Assembly: GCF_013304445.1 (NCBI RefSeq)
Contig: NZ_JAAITA010000011.1
Span: forward strand, 1-64,000
Length of the DNA: 64,000 bases
Source of the DNA: Blautia hansenii
GTDB lineage: Bacteria > Bacillota > Clostridia > Lachnospirales > Lachnospiraceae
Direction of reading: 5' to 3'
Positions 16,236-44,637 of the stretch are shown in pieces (position 1 is the stretch's first letter; each line of letters opens with the position of its first letter). The notes under the pieces were generated by a model. That model ran no database searches, was not told the origin of the DNA, and saw only the letters and a list, made by a program, of their open reading frames with translations. The translations under genes were made by a program, and so were the position numbers.

Positions 16236-16412
16236 AATGGAAGGGTGCAGGAAAGCGGCGAAATGCCCACCGAAGGAGTAATACTCTCAGGGGTCTTTTA
16301 CAAGACGAGACTGTATCTGGATGGCTCTCTGGAGAATCCCATTTATGGGTGCCGAAGGTGTAAGCAGACGGAAATCCGGCTGTGAATCTCTCAGGCAAAA
16401 GGACAGTGAAGT
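16236..16412 (+). ncRNA. Tandem glycine riboswitch
   Basis: Two glycine aptamers in a row. The first has CACCGAAGGAGTAA and CTCTCAGG (about 16240-16312). The second has GTGCCGAAGGTGTAA and the very typical CTCTCAGGCAAAAGGACAG ending near 16408. The gene controlled is an alanine/glycine symporter, a standard target. A large terminator hairpin lies about 70 nt downstream. By family knowledge, glycine binding alters formation of that terminator; the direction of control is not proven here. Confidence 0.92.
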
Positions 16413-16483
16413 TTTTACAGTTGTTTTTGTGCTTCAAAAACGGCTGTGCACAAACGCATTTGCGCTTAAACTGAACTTGAAAA

Positions 16484-40425: not shown

Positions 40426-41829
40426 ATGATTTACAAAGAAGGAAAAGTGTCTGATGTACAAATTGCTTACATAGGGGGAGGTTCCAGAGGTTGGGCTTGG
40501 ACTTTCATGACTGATTTGGCATTGGAACCTAATATGAGCGGAACTATTCGTCTGTATGATTTGAATGAAAACGCAGCAAAGGCGAATGAAACAATCGGAA
40601 ATCATGTTACAGAAAGAGAAGAAGCAGTTGGTAAGTGGAAATATGAAACTTATACAGATGCAGAACAGGCGTTAACTGGGGTGGATTTCATTGTAATTTC
40701 CATTCTTCCGGGAACTTTTGAGGAGATGGCTGTTGATGTACATATGCCGGAGCGTTTGGGAATTTATCAATCTGTAGGAGATACTGCGGGACCGGGAGGT
40801 ATTATGCGTGCACTTCGCACCATTCCCATGTTTGTAAAAATTGCAGAGGATATTAAAAAGTATGCTCCGTCTGCCTGGGTTATCAACTATACCAATCCTA
40901 TGAGTTTATGTGTGAAAACGCTGTATCATACTTTCCCGGAAATTAAGGCATTTGGTTGCTGCCACGAAGTTTTTGGCACACAGAAAGTTTTAAAAGCCAT
41001 TGCAGAAGAAAAGCTGCATTTGGAAAACGTGGATAGAAGAGACATTCATGTTAATGTATTGGGTATCAACCACTTTACATGGTTTGATTATGCAGCATAT
41101 AAGGGTGTTGATTTGTTCCCTGTTTATAGAGAATATATTGAAGAACACTATGAAGAGGGATACAATGAGCCGGATAAAAACTGGGCAAACAGCGCCTTCA
41201 ACTGTGCCCATAGAGTAAAATTTGATTTATTTAAACGCTATGGTTTCATTGCAGCAGCAGGAGATCGCCATCTGGCAGAATTTATGCCGGGTGATGAATA
41301 TTTAAATGACCCAGAAACAGTGAAAAGTTGGAAATTCGGTCTGACAACGGTAGACTGGAGAAAGAAGGATTTAAAAGAACGTCTGGAAAAGAGTGACAGA
41401 CTGTTACACGGCGAAGAAGAAGTCGAGTTGAAACCGACAGGAGAAGAAGGAATTCTTTTAATCAAGGCGCTTTGTGGTTTGGAAAGAGTAGTGAGCAATG
41501 TAAATATTCCGAATACAGCTTTGCAGATACCGAATCTTCCTGCATCTGCAGTTGTAGAAACAAATGCAGTATTTGAAAGAGATGCCATTCGTCCAGTTGC
41601 AGCAGGAAAAATACCGGAGAATGTGAGAACATTGATTATGCCCCATGTGGAAAATCATGAGACAACTTTGAAAGCAGCCTTAACTTGTGACAAAGAACTG
41701 GTAGTACAGGCCTTTTTGAATGACCCGCTTGTAAAGGGTAAAAAGTGTACAGAAGAACAGGTTAGAGAACTGGTAGATGATATGCTTCAGGGAACCTTGA
41801 AATATCTGCCAGAAGGCTGGAAAAATTAA
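40426..41829 (+). CDS. GH4 family glycosidase, probable alpha-galacturonidase (LplD-like)
   Basis: A 467-aa NAD- and metal-dependent glycosidase. YIGGGSRGW (14-22) is the NAD-binding loop, VGDTAGPGG (~122-130) is the family block, and CHEV at 179-182 holds the metal-binding Cys/His pair. GH4 subgroups differ in the residues after this Cys, and, as recalled, CHEV is found in the LplD-type alpha-galacturonidases; the subgroup should be checked. The context of an lplABC-like importer supports galacturonide hydrolysis. AAGGAG precedes the ATG. The gene ends the operon and is followed by a repeated hairpin. Confidence 0.82.
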   Translation: MIYKEGKVSDVQIAYIGGGSRGWAWTFMTDLALEPNMSGTIRLYDLNENAAKANETIGNHVTEREEAVGKWKYETYTDAEQALTGVDFIVISILPGTFEEMAVDVHMPERLGIYQSVGDTAGPGGIMRALRTIPMFVKIAEDIKKYAPSAWVINYTNPMSLCVKTLYHTFPEIKAFGCCHEVFGTQKVLKAIAEEKLHLENVDRRDIHVNVLGINHFTWFDYAAYKGVDLFPVYREYIEEHYEEGYNEPDKNWANSAFNCAHRVKFDLFKRYGFIAAAGDRHLAEFMPGDEYLNDPETVKSWKFGLTTVDWRKKDLKERLEKSDRLLHGEEEVELKPTGEEGILLIKALCGLERVVSNVNIPNTALQIPNLPASAVVETNAVFERDAIRPVAAGKIPENVRTLIMPHVENHETTLKAALTCDKELVVQAFLNDPLVKGKKCTEEQVRELVDDMLQGTLKYLPEGWKN

Positions 41830-42174
41830 ATTTGTGAAACCTTTCATTTTTTTGGGCAGGATTCTACTATTGGTGGAACCTGCCTGTTCCTTAAAATGTA
41901 GTGGAAACCTGCCGGTGTCTGTGTTACAATATATATGAAAGCATTATATTTCCACTATCTAAAAAATCTGTTGCGGCATCTGCCGTGTCTGAAACTCTGA
42001 CAGCATATCAAGGAAAATCTCAATGCTTTTATTCACAAGAAACAGAAAATGCAGAGAGGTTTTAGGAGACATGTTGGAGGATAACAGATAAAGAAGGGTT
42101 ATCTGTTGCCAAAATGGAAAATGTTTGGCAGAGTGTTTCCACCTCCTGCAAAGAAAAGAGGAGGTATTTACATT
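41830..42174. other. Intergenic stretch, no convincing gene
   Basis: About 345 bp between GH4 and the Rpn-like gene. It holds hairpin repeat copy A, a partial further copy of one arm (GTGGAAACCTGCC near 41900), a possible -10 (TACAAT near 41925) and a short open stretch (about 41950-42065) reading KSVAASAVSETLTAYQGKSQ with no start or ribosome site. The last may be a gene fragment but is not recognisable. Confidence 0.5.
41854..41894 (+). repeat. 41-bp hairpin repeat, copy A
   Basis: The sequence is GGCAGG...CCTGCC with an inner TCTAC/GGTGGA region, and matches copy B at 43011-43051 in 39 of 41 positions. It forms a terminator-like hairpin with CTGTTCCTT at its 3' side, downstream of GH4. 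Confidence 0.85.
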
Positions 42175-42972
42175 ATGGAAACAATGAAAACCGTTCCAAA
42201 CAGAATGTATAAGGCTACGGTGTTTGCCATGCTTTTTGAGGACAAAAAGCGTTTGCTGGAACTTTATAATGCCATTAGCGGAAAACATTATACGGACCCG
42301 GATATGTTGGAAATTAACACTTTGGAAAATGCCATTTATATGGCTGTGAAAAATGATATTTCTTTTCTCATAGATGCCAGATTGTCGTTATATGAGCATC
42401 AGTCCACATACAGTCCCAATCTTCCGCTTCGGTTTCTGTTGTATATTTCCAGTCTTTTTTCGTCTATGACAAAGGAGCTGAATCTGTATGGAACAAAGCC
42501 CATAGAACTTCCGACACCCCAGTTTGTGGTATTCTATAATGGTTTACAGGAACAGCCAGACAGAAAAATACTGAAACTTTCAGACCTTTATACGGTAAAA
42601 GGAGAGTGCAATCTGGAGCTGGAAGCGGTAGAAAAGGCTATAGAAGAGTGCATCCGGGAAGGGATTTTGAAAGAATTTCTGGAAAAGAATAAAGCGGAGG
42701 CAAGGAATATGAGCATATTTGAATATGACCAGGAAAAGCACCTCAGGCAGGAGCGGGAAGAAGCCTGGGAAGAGGGAAGAAAGGTTGGAGTAGAGGCTGG
42801 AATTCTTCAGGGATTAGAGAAAGGGTTGGCACAGGGAAAAGAACAGGGAAAATATGATATGCTCTGTAAACTCATACAGAAAAAGCTGAACAAAGGAAAG
42901 AATACAGCCGAGATTGCCAAAGAACTGGAAGAACCGGAAGAGGTTATCATCGGTATTTTGGAGAAACTATAA
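42175..42972 (+). CDS. Rpn family / PD-(D/E)XK nuclease-like protein
   Basis: A 265-aa protein of the Rpn/transposase-like PD-(D/E)XK group abundant in Lachnospiraceae. Typical features are FAMLFEDKKRLLELYNAISG, LENAIYMAVKNDISFLID, LSLYEHQSTYSPNLPLRFLLY and FVVFYNGL, with the conserved Asp/Glu-x-x region inside the first half. The C-terminus is a charged coiled coil with GLEKGLAQGKEQGK. The segment between NLELE and AVEKAIEEC is shorter than I expect for the family, suggesting an in-frame internal deletion. It starts after GAGGAGG and is flanked by two near-identical hairpin repeats. Rpn proteins are DNA nucleases linked to recombination or defence; the role here is unknown. Confidence 0.75.
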   Translation: METMKTVPNRMYKATVFAMLFEDKKRLLELYNAISGKHYTDPDMLEINTLENAIYMAVKNDISFLIDARLSLYEHQSTYSPNLPLRFLLYISSLFSSMTKELNLYGTKPIELPTPQFVVFYNGLQEQPDRKILKLSDLYTVKGECNLELEAVEKAIEECIREGILKEFLEKNKAEARNMSIFEYDQEKHLRQEREEAWEEGRKVGVEAGILQGLEKGLAQGKEQGKYDMLCKLIQKKLNKGKNTAEIAKELEEPEEVIIGILEKL

Positions 42973-43010
42973 AATTCATGCTTCACCAATACTGTAAGGA
43001 CATTTTGGGA

Positions 43011-43051
43011 GGGCAGGATTCCACTATTGGTGGAACCTGCCTGTTTCTTAA
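43011..43051 (+). repeat. 41-bp hairpin repeat, copy B
   Basis: Second copy of the GGCAGGATTCCAC/GTGGAACCTGCC hairpin, 1157 bp from copy A. It lies between the converging Rpn-like gene and retron RT, covers the RT stop codon and probably terminates both. Confidence 0.85.
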
Positions 43052-44022
43052 TCATGAATAAAAAAAGAGTTTGTTATCCACCTCTTCCATTCACAAAATT
43101 CCCCGTCTTCCGGATTTATCTGCAGAACATATTGAATTTTGCCAAGGAGTCTTTGGAGATATTTCTGTTTATCACCCGTATACTCAATATGAGATAAATG
43201 GTTTTCTAAGCCGAATTTTCGGATATAATAACACTCCTGACGCAGACGACGGCGGTAATTCTTCGGAACCTGAAGTTTTTCGTTCGCTACAATGCCTGTA
43301 ATCTCCTGCCGGTTTTTCTGGGAGCAGATACGGGTTTTCTTATGGTTCAACTCAAAGCCCAGACGGTTTAAAAAGCCCTCTGCTTTTTTTAGTACTTCTT
43401 TTGGATGAAAGTCACCGGAAAAGGTCATATCGTCACAATATCTGGTATAAGCAATTTCTCGTACCCGGCACCAGTTTCCCATGTATTCGTCAAAAGGTTT
43501 CATGACAAGATTAGAAAGATAGGGGGAAGTTGGCGCGCCTTGAGGCAGTCTGTCTTTATAACAGCACAGATGAGCCAAAAGTGTGCGTACAGAATCCGGT
43601 ATTCTCTCACAGGGAAATCCATGCTGATAGACGCTGATATAAGAAATACTGTCAAAAAAATCCTGTATATCCAGTTTCAACACCAGTTTTTGTGCCTGGT
43701 GAGGGAAAGCGTTGCTGCGAAGAGAGATTCCTTTTTGATAGGCGCAGGCATAGCCGGATACCGGAAATTCCCTTAGAACCTGCCGCAAAATTTGTGTTTG
43801 GACATACTTTAATACACTGTCCGGCGCATGAAGAATTCTTTTAGTGCCGTTTCTTTTAGGGATGGAGATTTTTTCGTAGTGTTCGTCTGCGTGATTGGCA
43901 AGAGCGTATAAAAGAGCCATTTCAGCGGTCGGTGTGTGGGTGAGATTTTCTGTCAGATGCAGAGAAAGAAGGAAATCCTGTGTCTGTTCTTTTGTATAAT
44001 ATTTCCAGAGAGAGGGAGCCAT
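43048..44022 (-). CDS. Retron-type reverse transcriptase
   Basis: A 324-aa RT with the order expected for retron enzymes. NAFPH at 104-108 matches the NAxxH motif of region X, LDIQDFFDSI (117-126) is RT motif A, QGAPTSPYLSNL (161-172) is RT motif B, YCDD (195-198) is the catalytic motif (more often YADD), and ITG (241-243) fits the VTG of region Y. There is no maturase or endonuclease domain, as a group II intron protein would have. It would copy part of the RNA encoded just upstream into msDNA. The ribosome site on the minus strand is GGAGGTATC. Only the RT is in this orientation; no effector is fused to or co-directional with it. Confidence 0.88.
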   Translation of the reverse strand: MAPSLWKYYTKEQTQDFLLSLHLTENLTHTPTAEMALLYALANHADEHYEKISIPKRNGTKRILHAPDSVLKYVQTQILRQVLREFPVSGYACAYQKGISLRSNAFPHQAQKLVLKLDIQDFFDSISYISVYQHGFPCERIPDSVRTLLAHLCCYKDRLPQGAPTSPYLSNLVMKPFDEYMGNWCRVREIAYTRYCDDMTFSGDFHPKEVLKKAEGFLNRLGFELNHKKTRICSQKNRQEITGIVANEKLQVPKNYRRRLRQECYYIRKFGLENHLSHIEYTGDKQKYLQRLLGKIQYVLQINPEDGEFCEWKRWITNSFFIHD

Positions 44023-44075
44023 ATGATACCTCCGTGTTTCCTGTATTGCTATTCATGAAAATGTATTTTTAAAAA

Positions 44076-44262
44076 CACAGCAGACACTAAATGGTGATAC
44101 CGGATTCGGCGAAGAGGTACGGCGCCGCAGGCGAGAAAGCACATGCAGTGTGCAGATGTACCTCGGAGCCGAAGGAGGGCTGGCGCAGCCATACCTTTCG
44201 GAATAAAAAATAGAAAAGCGACTCGCTTCTCTGACAGAAAACTGTCTCCTCTGTCTGCTGTG
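44076..44262 (-). ncRNA. Retron msr-msd non-coding RNA (candidate)
   Basis: On the minus strand the locus runs from a1 CACAGCAGACA (44262-44252) to a2 TGTCTGCTGTG (44086-44076), perfect 11-bp complements. After a1 come two short stem-loops, GACAG-TTTT-CTGTC (44246-44233) and AAGCG/CGCTT (44228-44216), typical of msr. A U-rich spacer leads to a GC-rich, multi-branched msd: CCGAAAGG/CCTTCGG (with inner GGCT/AGCC) and GAGGTAC/GTACCTC enclosing smaller hairpins. A2 ends 54 nt before the RT start codon. Size (187 nt) and layout fit retrons. The branching G and msDNA ends cannot be placed from sequence alone. Confidence 0.75.
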
Positions 44263-44370
44263 ATTAAAATTACTGTAGCATAGGAAAGAGGGAAAGTAAA
44301 GAGTTCCTAAGTCCTAAATACTAAATCCCCAGCATACATTGTAAAAACAATGTTTTCGGGGGATTTTTCC

Positions 44371-44637
44371 TTGAAAGATTATATTGAGGAACGGGCGGTT
44401 GAAATAGCAAATTATATTATTGAAGAAAAGGCAACAGTAAGGCAGACAGCAAAGAAGTTTGGGGTATCGAAGTCTACGGTACATAAAGACTGCACAGAAC
44501 GACTTCTTCAGATAAATCCGGCTCTGGCGGCGGAGGCGCGGAAGATCCTGGATTTGAACAAGTCCGAGCGCCATATCCGCGGTGGACTGGCTACCAGAGA
44601 AAAATATCTGCATATGGGGAATCATATAGAGGAGTAG
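44371..44637 (+). CDS. spoIIID: Sporulation transcriptional regulator SpoIIID
   Basis: An 88-aa DNA-binding protein that, in Bacillus, controls mother-cell genes during sporulation. Its sequence KDYIEERAVEIANYIIEEK, the helix-turn-helix RQTAKKFGVSKSTVHKD, and the late RHIRGGLATREKYL match SpoIIID throughout. A TTG at 44371 is chosen because it aligns with the Bacillus start and follows GGGGG by 8 nt; an upstream ATG at 44350 would add seven odd residues. It is transcribed away from the retron. Confidence 0.92.
   Translation: MKDYIEERAVEIANYIIEEKATVRQTAKKFGVSKSTVHKDCTERLLQINPALAAEARKILDLNKSERHIRGGLATREKYLHMGNHIEE

What the first reader, a model, noticed from the sequence alone, without database searches (positions are those of the whole stretch)
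43048..44262. Retron: RT plus candidate msr-msd RNA with a perfect a1/a2 pair
The RT carries NAFPH (104-108), QGAPTSP, YCDD and ITG motifs in retron order. Upstream on the same strand, an 11-bp perfect inverted repeat (44076-44086 and 44252-44262) bounds a 187-nt locus with two small msr-like hairpins and a GC-rich branched msd-like region. RNA and RT are separated by 54 nt. This appears to be a complete RT-ncRNA module with a less common YCDD active site and a multi-branched msd, and may be a new retron subtype.
Basis: partly seen in the sequence, partly recalled or inferred. Interest (0 to 1): 0.88.

Follow-up and report, generated by a model that had tools for sequence, protein, structure and literature searches.

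The report
Ec107-type solo retron in a Blautia
This is a complete-looking retron (a bacterial reverse transcriptase with the structured RNA it is expected to copy into DNA) that belongs to the same family as the long-known E. coli retron Ec107, a family with no recurring partner gene beside it, so what it does for the cell is still an open question.

Summary
In detail: a 324-aa retron RT (43048-44022, minus) with NAFPH, QGAPTSP, YCDD and ITG, and 53 nt upstream a 187-nt RNA (44076-44262) closed by an 11-bp a1/a2 pair. The RNA is supported by covariation: in 42 aligned RNAs, 11 of 12 a1/a2 pairs and 31 of 41 pairs overall show changes on both sides. The 'new subtype' reading is not supported: PADLOC's best model is RT_Ec107-like (457 bits), the E. 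coli pyrE-RT-slmA locus has a 48% identical RT, my RNA model finds the E. coli RNA at E 1.9e-21, and both RTs fall in one clade. YCDD is the rule here (65 of 80 relatives). What stays interesting: no partner gene recurs at a fixed place beside the RT in 80 loci, the unit sits in six contexts in nine same-genus genomes, and Rfam 15 has no model for the RNA. Most likely it makes an msDNA of about 100-115 nt primed at G44251; this is inferred. Its function is unknown and probably needs no linked toxin. One relative carries a stray chromosomal copy of the msd alone.

The parts
43048..44022 (-). Retron reverse transcriptase, 324 aa, Ec107-like (NAFPH, QGAPTSP, YCDD, ITG)
44252..44262 (-). a1 arm of the a1/a2 pair
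   Evidence: 11 of 12 aligned a1/a2 pairs show both-side changes
44076..44086 (-). a2 arm of the a1/a2 pair
44251..44251 (-). Predicted priming (branch) guanosine: a G directly 3' of a1 in 42 of 42 aligned RNAs
   Evidence: its role is inferred from retron biochemistry
44233..44246 (-). msr hairpin 1 (variable sequence)
   Evidence: two column pairs of it pair in 34 and 35 of 42
44212..44232 (-). msr hairpin 2 with invariant CGAGUCG core
   Evidence: 6 of 9 pairs with both-side changes
44087..44201 (-). msd (predicted cDNA template, about 100-115 nt; cDNA start at 44087; far end inferred, uncertain by about 15 nt)
   Evidence: length by analogy with Ec107 (107 nt by its name, recalled) and with the msd-only copy in G321
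44139..44153 (-). Conserved GCACA/UGUGC msd tip hairpin
44272..44300 (-). Probable promoter (TTTACT, 17 nt, TACAGT with TG before it); relatives such as L002 have TTGCGT and TACACT at the same place
   Evidence: read; the consensus scan did not list it
44028..44033 (-). Shine-Dalgarno-like GGAGGT of the RT gene
   Evidence: sequence
44350..44637 (+). Flanking gene spoIIID (divergent, not part of the retron)
42106..42972 (+). Flanking convergent gene, Rpn-like by eye (no Pfam match), not part of the retron: absent from the sister genome G411

Best explanation
A two-component retron of the Ec107 family. One transcript, starting just before a1, would carry the msr-msd RNA and the RT gene. a1 and a2 pair and close the RNA; the RT binds the msr (hairpin with CGAGUCG core), primes on the 2'-OH of G44251 and copies the msd from 44087 towards about 44200, giving a branched RNA-DNA (msDNA) with about 100-115 nt of DNA and a long stem. 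Shown here by comparison: the RT family, the conserved and covarying RNA, homology of both parts to the E. coli Ec107 locus. Inferred: priming site, cDNA ends, transcription unit. The unit carries no recognisable effector gene, so RT and msDNA either act through a host protein encoded elsewhere or have a role of their own; which is unknown.
For: PADLOC best model RT_Ec107-like 457 bits, next RT_III-A 352; the E. coli RT between pyrE and slmA scores 438.6 on the same model and is 48% identical to the window RT. RNA model R1, whose 42 training RNAs do not include E. coli (but do include three Pseudomonadota: Budvicia, Pragia, Saezia), finds the E. coli RNA at 91.7 bits, E 1.9e-21. Covariation: 41 pairs, 92.0% of cells paired (shuffled 73.9; partners slid by 1-3 columns 30.5-51.0), 31 pairs and 319 cells with both-side changes (shuffled 22.1 and 98.9; 0 of 500 shuffles as high). 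Quick tree of 90 RTs: window and E. coli Ec107 both inside an 82-row clade (SH-aLRT 97) that excludes the III-A outgroup. 18 of 397 family genomes hold the RNA and all 18 are among the 24 with the RT. dN 0.046, dS 0.284 against the 90%-identical L026 copy. The commonest immediate downstream gene family occurs in 5 of 78 loci, all in one RT subclade.
Against: No expression or msDNA data. Five of 80 related loci gave no RNA match (L050, L056, L066, L093, L102). The neighbourhood survey used mechanical ORFs and single-linkage clusters; within 6 kb the largest clusters reach 11, 9 and 8 of 80 loci, though at differing distances, sides and strands in the places printed. The E. coli locus is called Ec107 from the family model; that Ec107 lies at this site is recalled, not read. 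The Ec107 end branch in the tree is long.
Confidence: 0.92

Rival explanations
1. A tripartite defence retron whose effector is encoded at a distance (in trans) or is a neighbouring gene such as the convergent 42106-42972 gene.
For: Retrons typically have a toxic effector (PMC12548924, start of abstract seen). The Rpn-like gene is next to the RT.
Against: That neighbour is on the opposite strand and is missing from the sister genome G411, where window 41895-43011 is absent while the retron is kept; related DNA occurs at many places in same-genus genomes. No gene recurs at a fixed place beside the RT in 80 loci beyond subclades. A distant partner cannot be excluded.
Confidence: 0.3
2. A relic: a retron that lost its effector and is decaying.
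For: No effector found beside it.
Against: RT intact, dN/dS about 0.16, RNA pairs kept by compensatory changes across the family, the same solo layout in E. coli.
Confidence: 0.04
3. A type III-A retron (nearest other family).
For: RT_III-A is the second best model, 352 bits.
Against: 457 bits to RT_Ec107-like; the III-A RTs used as outgroup lie outside its clade; five III-A-like loci give no R1 match.
Confidence: 0.02
4. Not a retron: group II intron, DGR, Abi or DRT reverse transcriptase.
For: Shared RVT_1 domain.
Against: Group II model 68 bits against a cut-off of 300, Drt2 58 against 390, Drt3a 53 against 200; solved-structure matches led by retron Ec86 at 162 bits, group II at 56; NAxxH present; associated msr-msd RNA. 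DGR and Abi references were not compared directly.
Confidence: 0.005

Closest known systems
Retron Ec107 (Retron-Eco5) of E. coli, pyrE-RT-slmA locus
   Same: RT model and 48% identity, YCDD, RNA with the same a1/a2, CGAGUCG hairpin and msd stem (R1 E 1.9e-21), no accessory gene between pyrE and slmA in the two records read, one chromosomal place per matching genome
   Different: Other host phylum and site; msd tip differs; the window RT and most of the 80 relatives carry an N-terminal LWKY-like motif that the annotated start of the E. coli RT lacks
Type III-A retrons (PADLOC RT_III-A)
   Same: Nearest other RT model (352 bits)
   Different: Outside the clade; R1 finds no RNA in five such loci
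Retron Ec86 (Eco1)
   Same: Best sequence match among solved structures (162 bits)
   Different: Another RT group; has an effector gene (recalled); YADD is the usual retron tetrad (PMC6868368, passage)

Membership tests
Retrons in general | RT with NAxxH (region X) and VTG-like (region Y) motifs | tested here: met
   NAFPH 104-108, ITG 241-243
Retrons in general | msr-msd RNA upstream on the same strand, closed by an a1/a2 inverted repeat | tested here: met
Retrons in general | Branching G next to a1 | tested here: inconclusive
   G in 42 of 42 RNAs; its use as primer cannot be tested here
Retrons in general | Production of msDNA | not testable with these tools
   needs an experiment
Ec107-like retrons | RT matches RT_Ec107-like best | tested here: met
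   457 bits; E. coli RT 438.6
Ec107-like retrons | RT groups with E. coli Ec107 | tested here: met
   82-row clade, SH-aLRT 97; quick tree without bootstrap, long Ec107 branch
Ec107-like retrons | Homologous RNA | tested here: met
   R1 on the E. coli locus, E 1.9e-21; three of 42 training RNAs are Pseudomonadota
Ec107-like retrons | No linked effector | tested here: met
   mechanical ORF calls, so a small or unusual effector could be missed
Type III-A retrons | RT scores best to III-A and groups with it | tested here: not met
Group II intron or DRT reverse transcriptases | RT reaches those models' cut-offs | tested here: not met
DGR or Abi reverse transcriptases | RT groups with them | not tested
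   no such reference was compared; none is among the six NCBIfam matches, but only 25 of 77 PADLOC matches were shown

The most novel reading that the evidence does not exclude
The Ec107 family is an effector-free branch of retrons: RT and msDNA alone, kept under selection from Lachnospiraceae to Enterobacterales, act by themselves or through a conserved host protein, and their msDNA can at times be pasted into the chromosome (an msd-only copy lies in genome G321).
Probability: 0.3. Interest if true: 0.65.

Novelty: new member of a known kind. Interest (0 to 1): 0.36.

Why it matters
Work on retrons centres on systems with an effector. This locus and its relatives give a family-wide RNA model that Rfam 15 lacks (no retron family matched the window or the E. 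coli RNA) and a comparative case that an old retron family does without a linked effector. That makes 'what does a solo retron do?' testable in E. coli, where 373 of 5426 complete genomes have a match to this RT (the match covers 29% of the query used).

Tried and rejected
New-subtype reading: rejected because RT, RNA and solo layout match Ec107. Group II or DRT RT: rejected. Neighbouring genes as effector: rejected for the Rpn-like gene and, for want of any gene at a fixed place, for other neighbours. Empty site: looked for, not found. The 77% identical copy in G397 has flanks that map to two different contigs of G000, and the interval between spoIIID and the gene at 40426-41829 is about 15.5 kb in G397 and 15.8 kb in G347, not an empty version of the window's. 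Phage or plasmid origin: best plasmid match 40%, best phage-collection match 46%, best viral contig 37% identity; no close mobile copy. Stray msd copies in the genus: none, the msd DNA matched at one place each in 8 of 20 genomes. Structure prediction was asked for six times and never ran. The 2020 retron classification paper and the 1996 Ec107 starvation paper are not held.

Choices made before counts: RNA alignment A2 holds the window and 41 of 80 named loci, chosen by hand from the 69 stems; near-duplicates, AT-rich divergent RNAs and rows whose stem looked displaced were left out, and the ends of a few rows (such as L067) were reset by hand. The other 39 loci were then tested with R1: 34 found. 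Only 6 of the 14 viral loci were given to R1. Besides the 45 matches counted, one search lists 17 weaker ones (E 0.02 to 0.62), most of them the other strand of the same RNA. The tree used 90 RTs cut to at most 360 aa. Of one search's 350 related stretches only the best 80 were kept by the tool.

Full report
What is there. The minus strand of 43048-44022 encodes a 324-aa reverse transcriptase with NAFPH (104-108), QGAPTSP, YCDD and ITG. Upstream, 44076-44262 is bounded by the perfect 11-bp pair a1 (44252-44262) and a2 (44076-44086) and folds better than its shuffles (-75.8 against a mean of -52.9 kcal/mol, z -5.6, 0 of 200 as good). RNA and RT are 53 nt apart. Rfam 15 gives no retron match here, at gathering scores for the whole window or at lax thresholds for 43900-44450 (five weak unrelated matches).

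The RNA is real. Upstream of the RT in relatives the same layout recurs. In an alignment of 42 RNAs (window and 41 of 80 named loci) a stated structure of 41 pairs has 92.0% of cells paired, 31 pairs with a change on both sides and 319 such cells, against 73.9%, 22.1 and 98.9 in shuffles and 30.5-51.0% paired when partners are slid. a1/a2 has both-side changes in 11 of 12 pairs, msr hairpin 2 in 6 of 9, the outer msd stem in 8 of 9 (but that stem is paired in only 79.1% of cells), the inner msd stem in 3 of 6, the tip in 3 of 5. The last base of a1 is A and the next is G in 42 of 42; G then U stand at the start of a2 in 42 of 42. A covariance model R1 built from these matched 45 of 61 sources at E up to 2e-4 next to the RT; these 45 include the window, a training row, and some loci that repeat named loci under another id. 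The 16 without are five III-A-like RT loci (L019, L021, L022, L024, L025), six viral contigs (L106-L111) and L050, L056, L066, L093, L102. Of 80 named loci the RNA is thus present in 75 (41 in training, 34 of 39 tested).

The RT is a retron RT of the Ec107 family. PADLOC: RT_Ec107-like 457 bits, RT_III-A 352 (25 of 77 matches shown). NCBIfam: retron St85 model 227.5 bits, just under its cut-off of 235; group II 68 against 300. Against solved structures Ec86 leads at 162 bits, group II at 56. The E. coli locus, found with the Pragia copy as a bridge, lies between pyrE and slmA, is matched in 373 of 5426 complete E. coli genomes, one chromosomal place each (29% of the query), scores 438.6 on RT_Ec107-like, is 48% identical to the window RT, and its RNA is found by R1 at 91.7 bits, E 1.9e-21. 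E. coli is not in R1's training set, but three other Pseudomonadota are (L054, L074, L076). That Ec107 sits between pyrE and this gene is recalled; PMC6868368 (passages) says that Ec107 has YCDD and replaces a palindromic 34-bp intergenic stretch. In a quick tree of 90 RTs, window and Ec107 lie in one 82-row clade (SH-aLRT 97), the Pseudomonadota among Bacillota and the five III-A RTs, used as outgroup, outside. The Ec107 branch is long and there was no bootstrap. YCDD occurs in 65 of 80 relatives and YSDD in 15, so YCDD is no oddity here.

No recurring partner gene. In 80 loci, 78 have a called downstream neighbour: 42 on the RT strand, 25 of these within 100 nt. The commonest immediate downstream family, a DHDPS-type enzyme (Pfam on the L028 copy), occurs in 5 of 78, all in one RT subclade. 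Within 6 kb the largest of 127 clusters reach 11, 9 and 8 of 80 loci, at differing distances, sides and strands in the places printed, as common gene families would; I did not identify those clusters. Of ten neighbours given to Pfam, nine match: DHDPS, a molybdopterin dehydrogenase FAD domain, GH25, AIM24, GntR-aminotransferase, leucyl-tRNA synthetase, YchF GTPase, NusB, DUF2809; one has none. In the window the neighbours are spoIIID, divergent, and a convergent gene that is absent from the sister genome G411. The window's genome holds one R1 match; of 33 chosen genomes 28 have a match, 27 of them one and G321 two.

Location. Nine same-genus genomes have an Ec107-like RT at 50% identity or more and an R1 match. 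In the stretches compared they show six contexts: window and G411 share flanks; G400, G413 and G405 share others; G397, G404, G403 and G399 share with the rest and with each other only pieces of 0.2-1.2 kb inside the retron. So a unit of about 1.2 kb (43096-44301 between window and G397) has changed place. The stretches were at most 15 kb, and no empty site was found.

A stray msd. In G321 a second, partial match (C2:2202793-2202909, 33 bits) is an msd-only copy: 47 nt at 94% and 31 nt at 90% identity to the msd of that genome's retron (L063, the same contig by length and position), without a1, a2 and part of the tip. It could be inserted msDNA or a decayed duplicate. A partial msDNA copy in Nannocystis is in the reference list of PMC6868368 (title only seen). 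None was found in the window's genus.

How it likely works. The transcript folds, a1 pairs with a2, the RT primes on G44251 and copies the msd from 44087 to about 44200; these steps are inferred from retron biochemistry. What the msDNA does is not known. PMC6868368 reports stronger Ec107 expression under phosphate starvation and on entry to stationary phase (passage). The low dN/dS (about 0.16, one pair) argues for a use.

Verdict. A well-supported new member of a known family, not a new subtype. Searches of the held library for Ec107 or Eco5 (the last listed 20 of 40 papers, most unrelated) gave few relevant papers; nothing is claimed about papers outside it.

Noticed in passing
window 44350-44637; G397:C1:3009619-3029961; G028:C12:135786-148530: spoIIID is intact in the window but split at one site (near window 44481-44490) in same-genus genomes: halves 20 kb apart in G397 and 12.5 kb in G028, only the 5' half listed for G400, G408, G409 and G347 (some at contig ends). 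Looks like a skin-type element in spoIIID. A search for spoIIID, skin element and excision listed 12 papers; none was read.
   Followed up: partly
window 41895-43011: The segment with the convergent Rpn-like gene is absent from the sister genome G411, where about 40 bp match both of its edges; related DNA occurs at several places in many same-genus genomes.
   Followed up: partly
L195 (G321:C2:2202793-2202909): Stray chromosomal copy of a retron msd without a1, a2 or RT.
   Followed up: partly
L009, L018: RT open frames run on into a ferredoxin-like (L009) and a YjeF-like (L018) sequence (names by eye); chance in-frame joins to host genes or true fusions.
   Followed up: no
L097:6152-8000; L085:2192-3296: RNA and RT lie 1.6 and 0.9 kb apart; in L097 a GH25 gene sits between them.
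   Followed up: partly
window 16319-16416: Glycine riboswitch, the only Rfam match at gathering score in the window.
   Followed up: no
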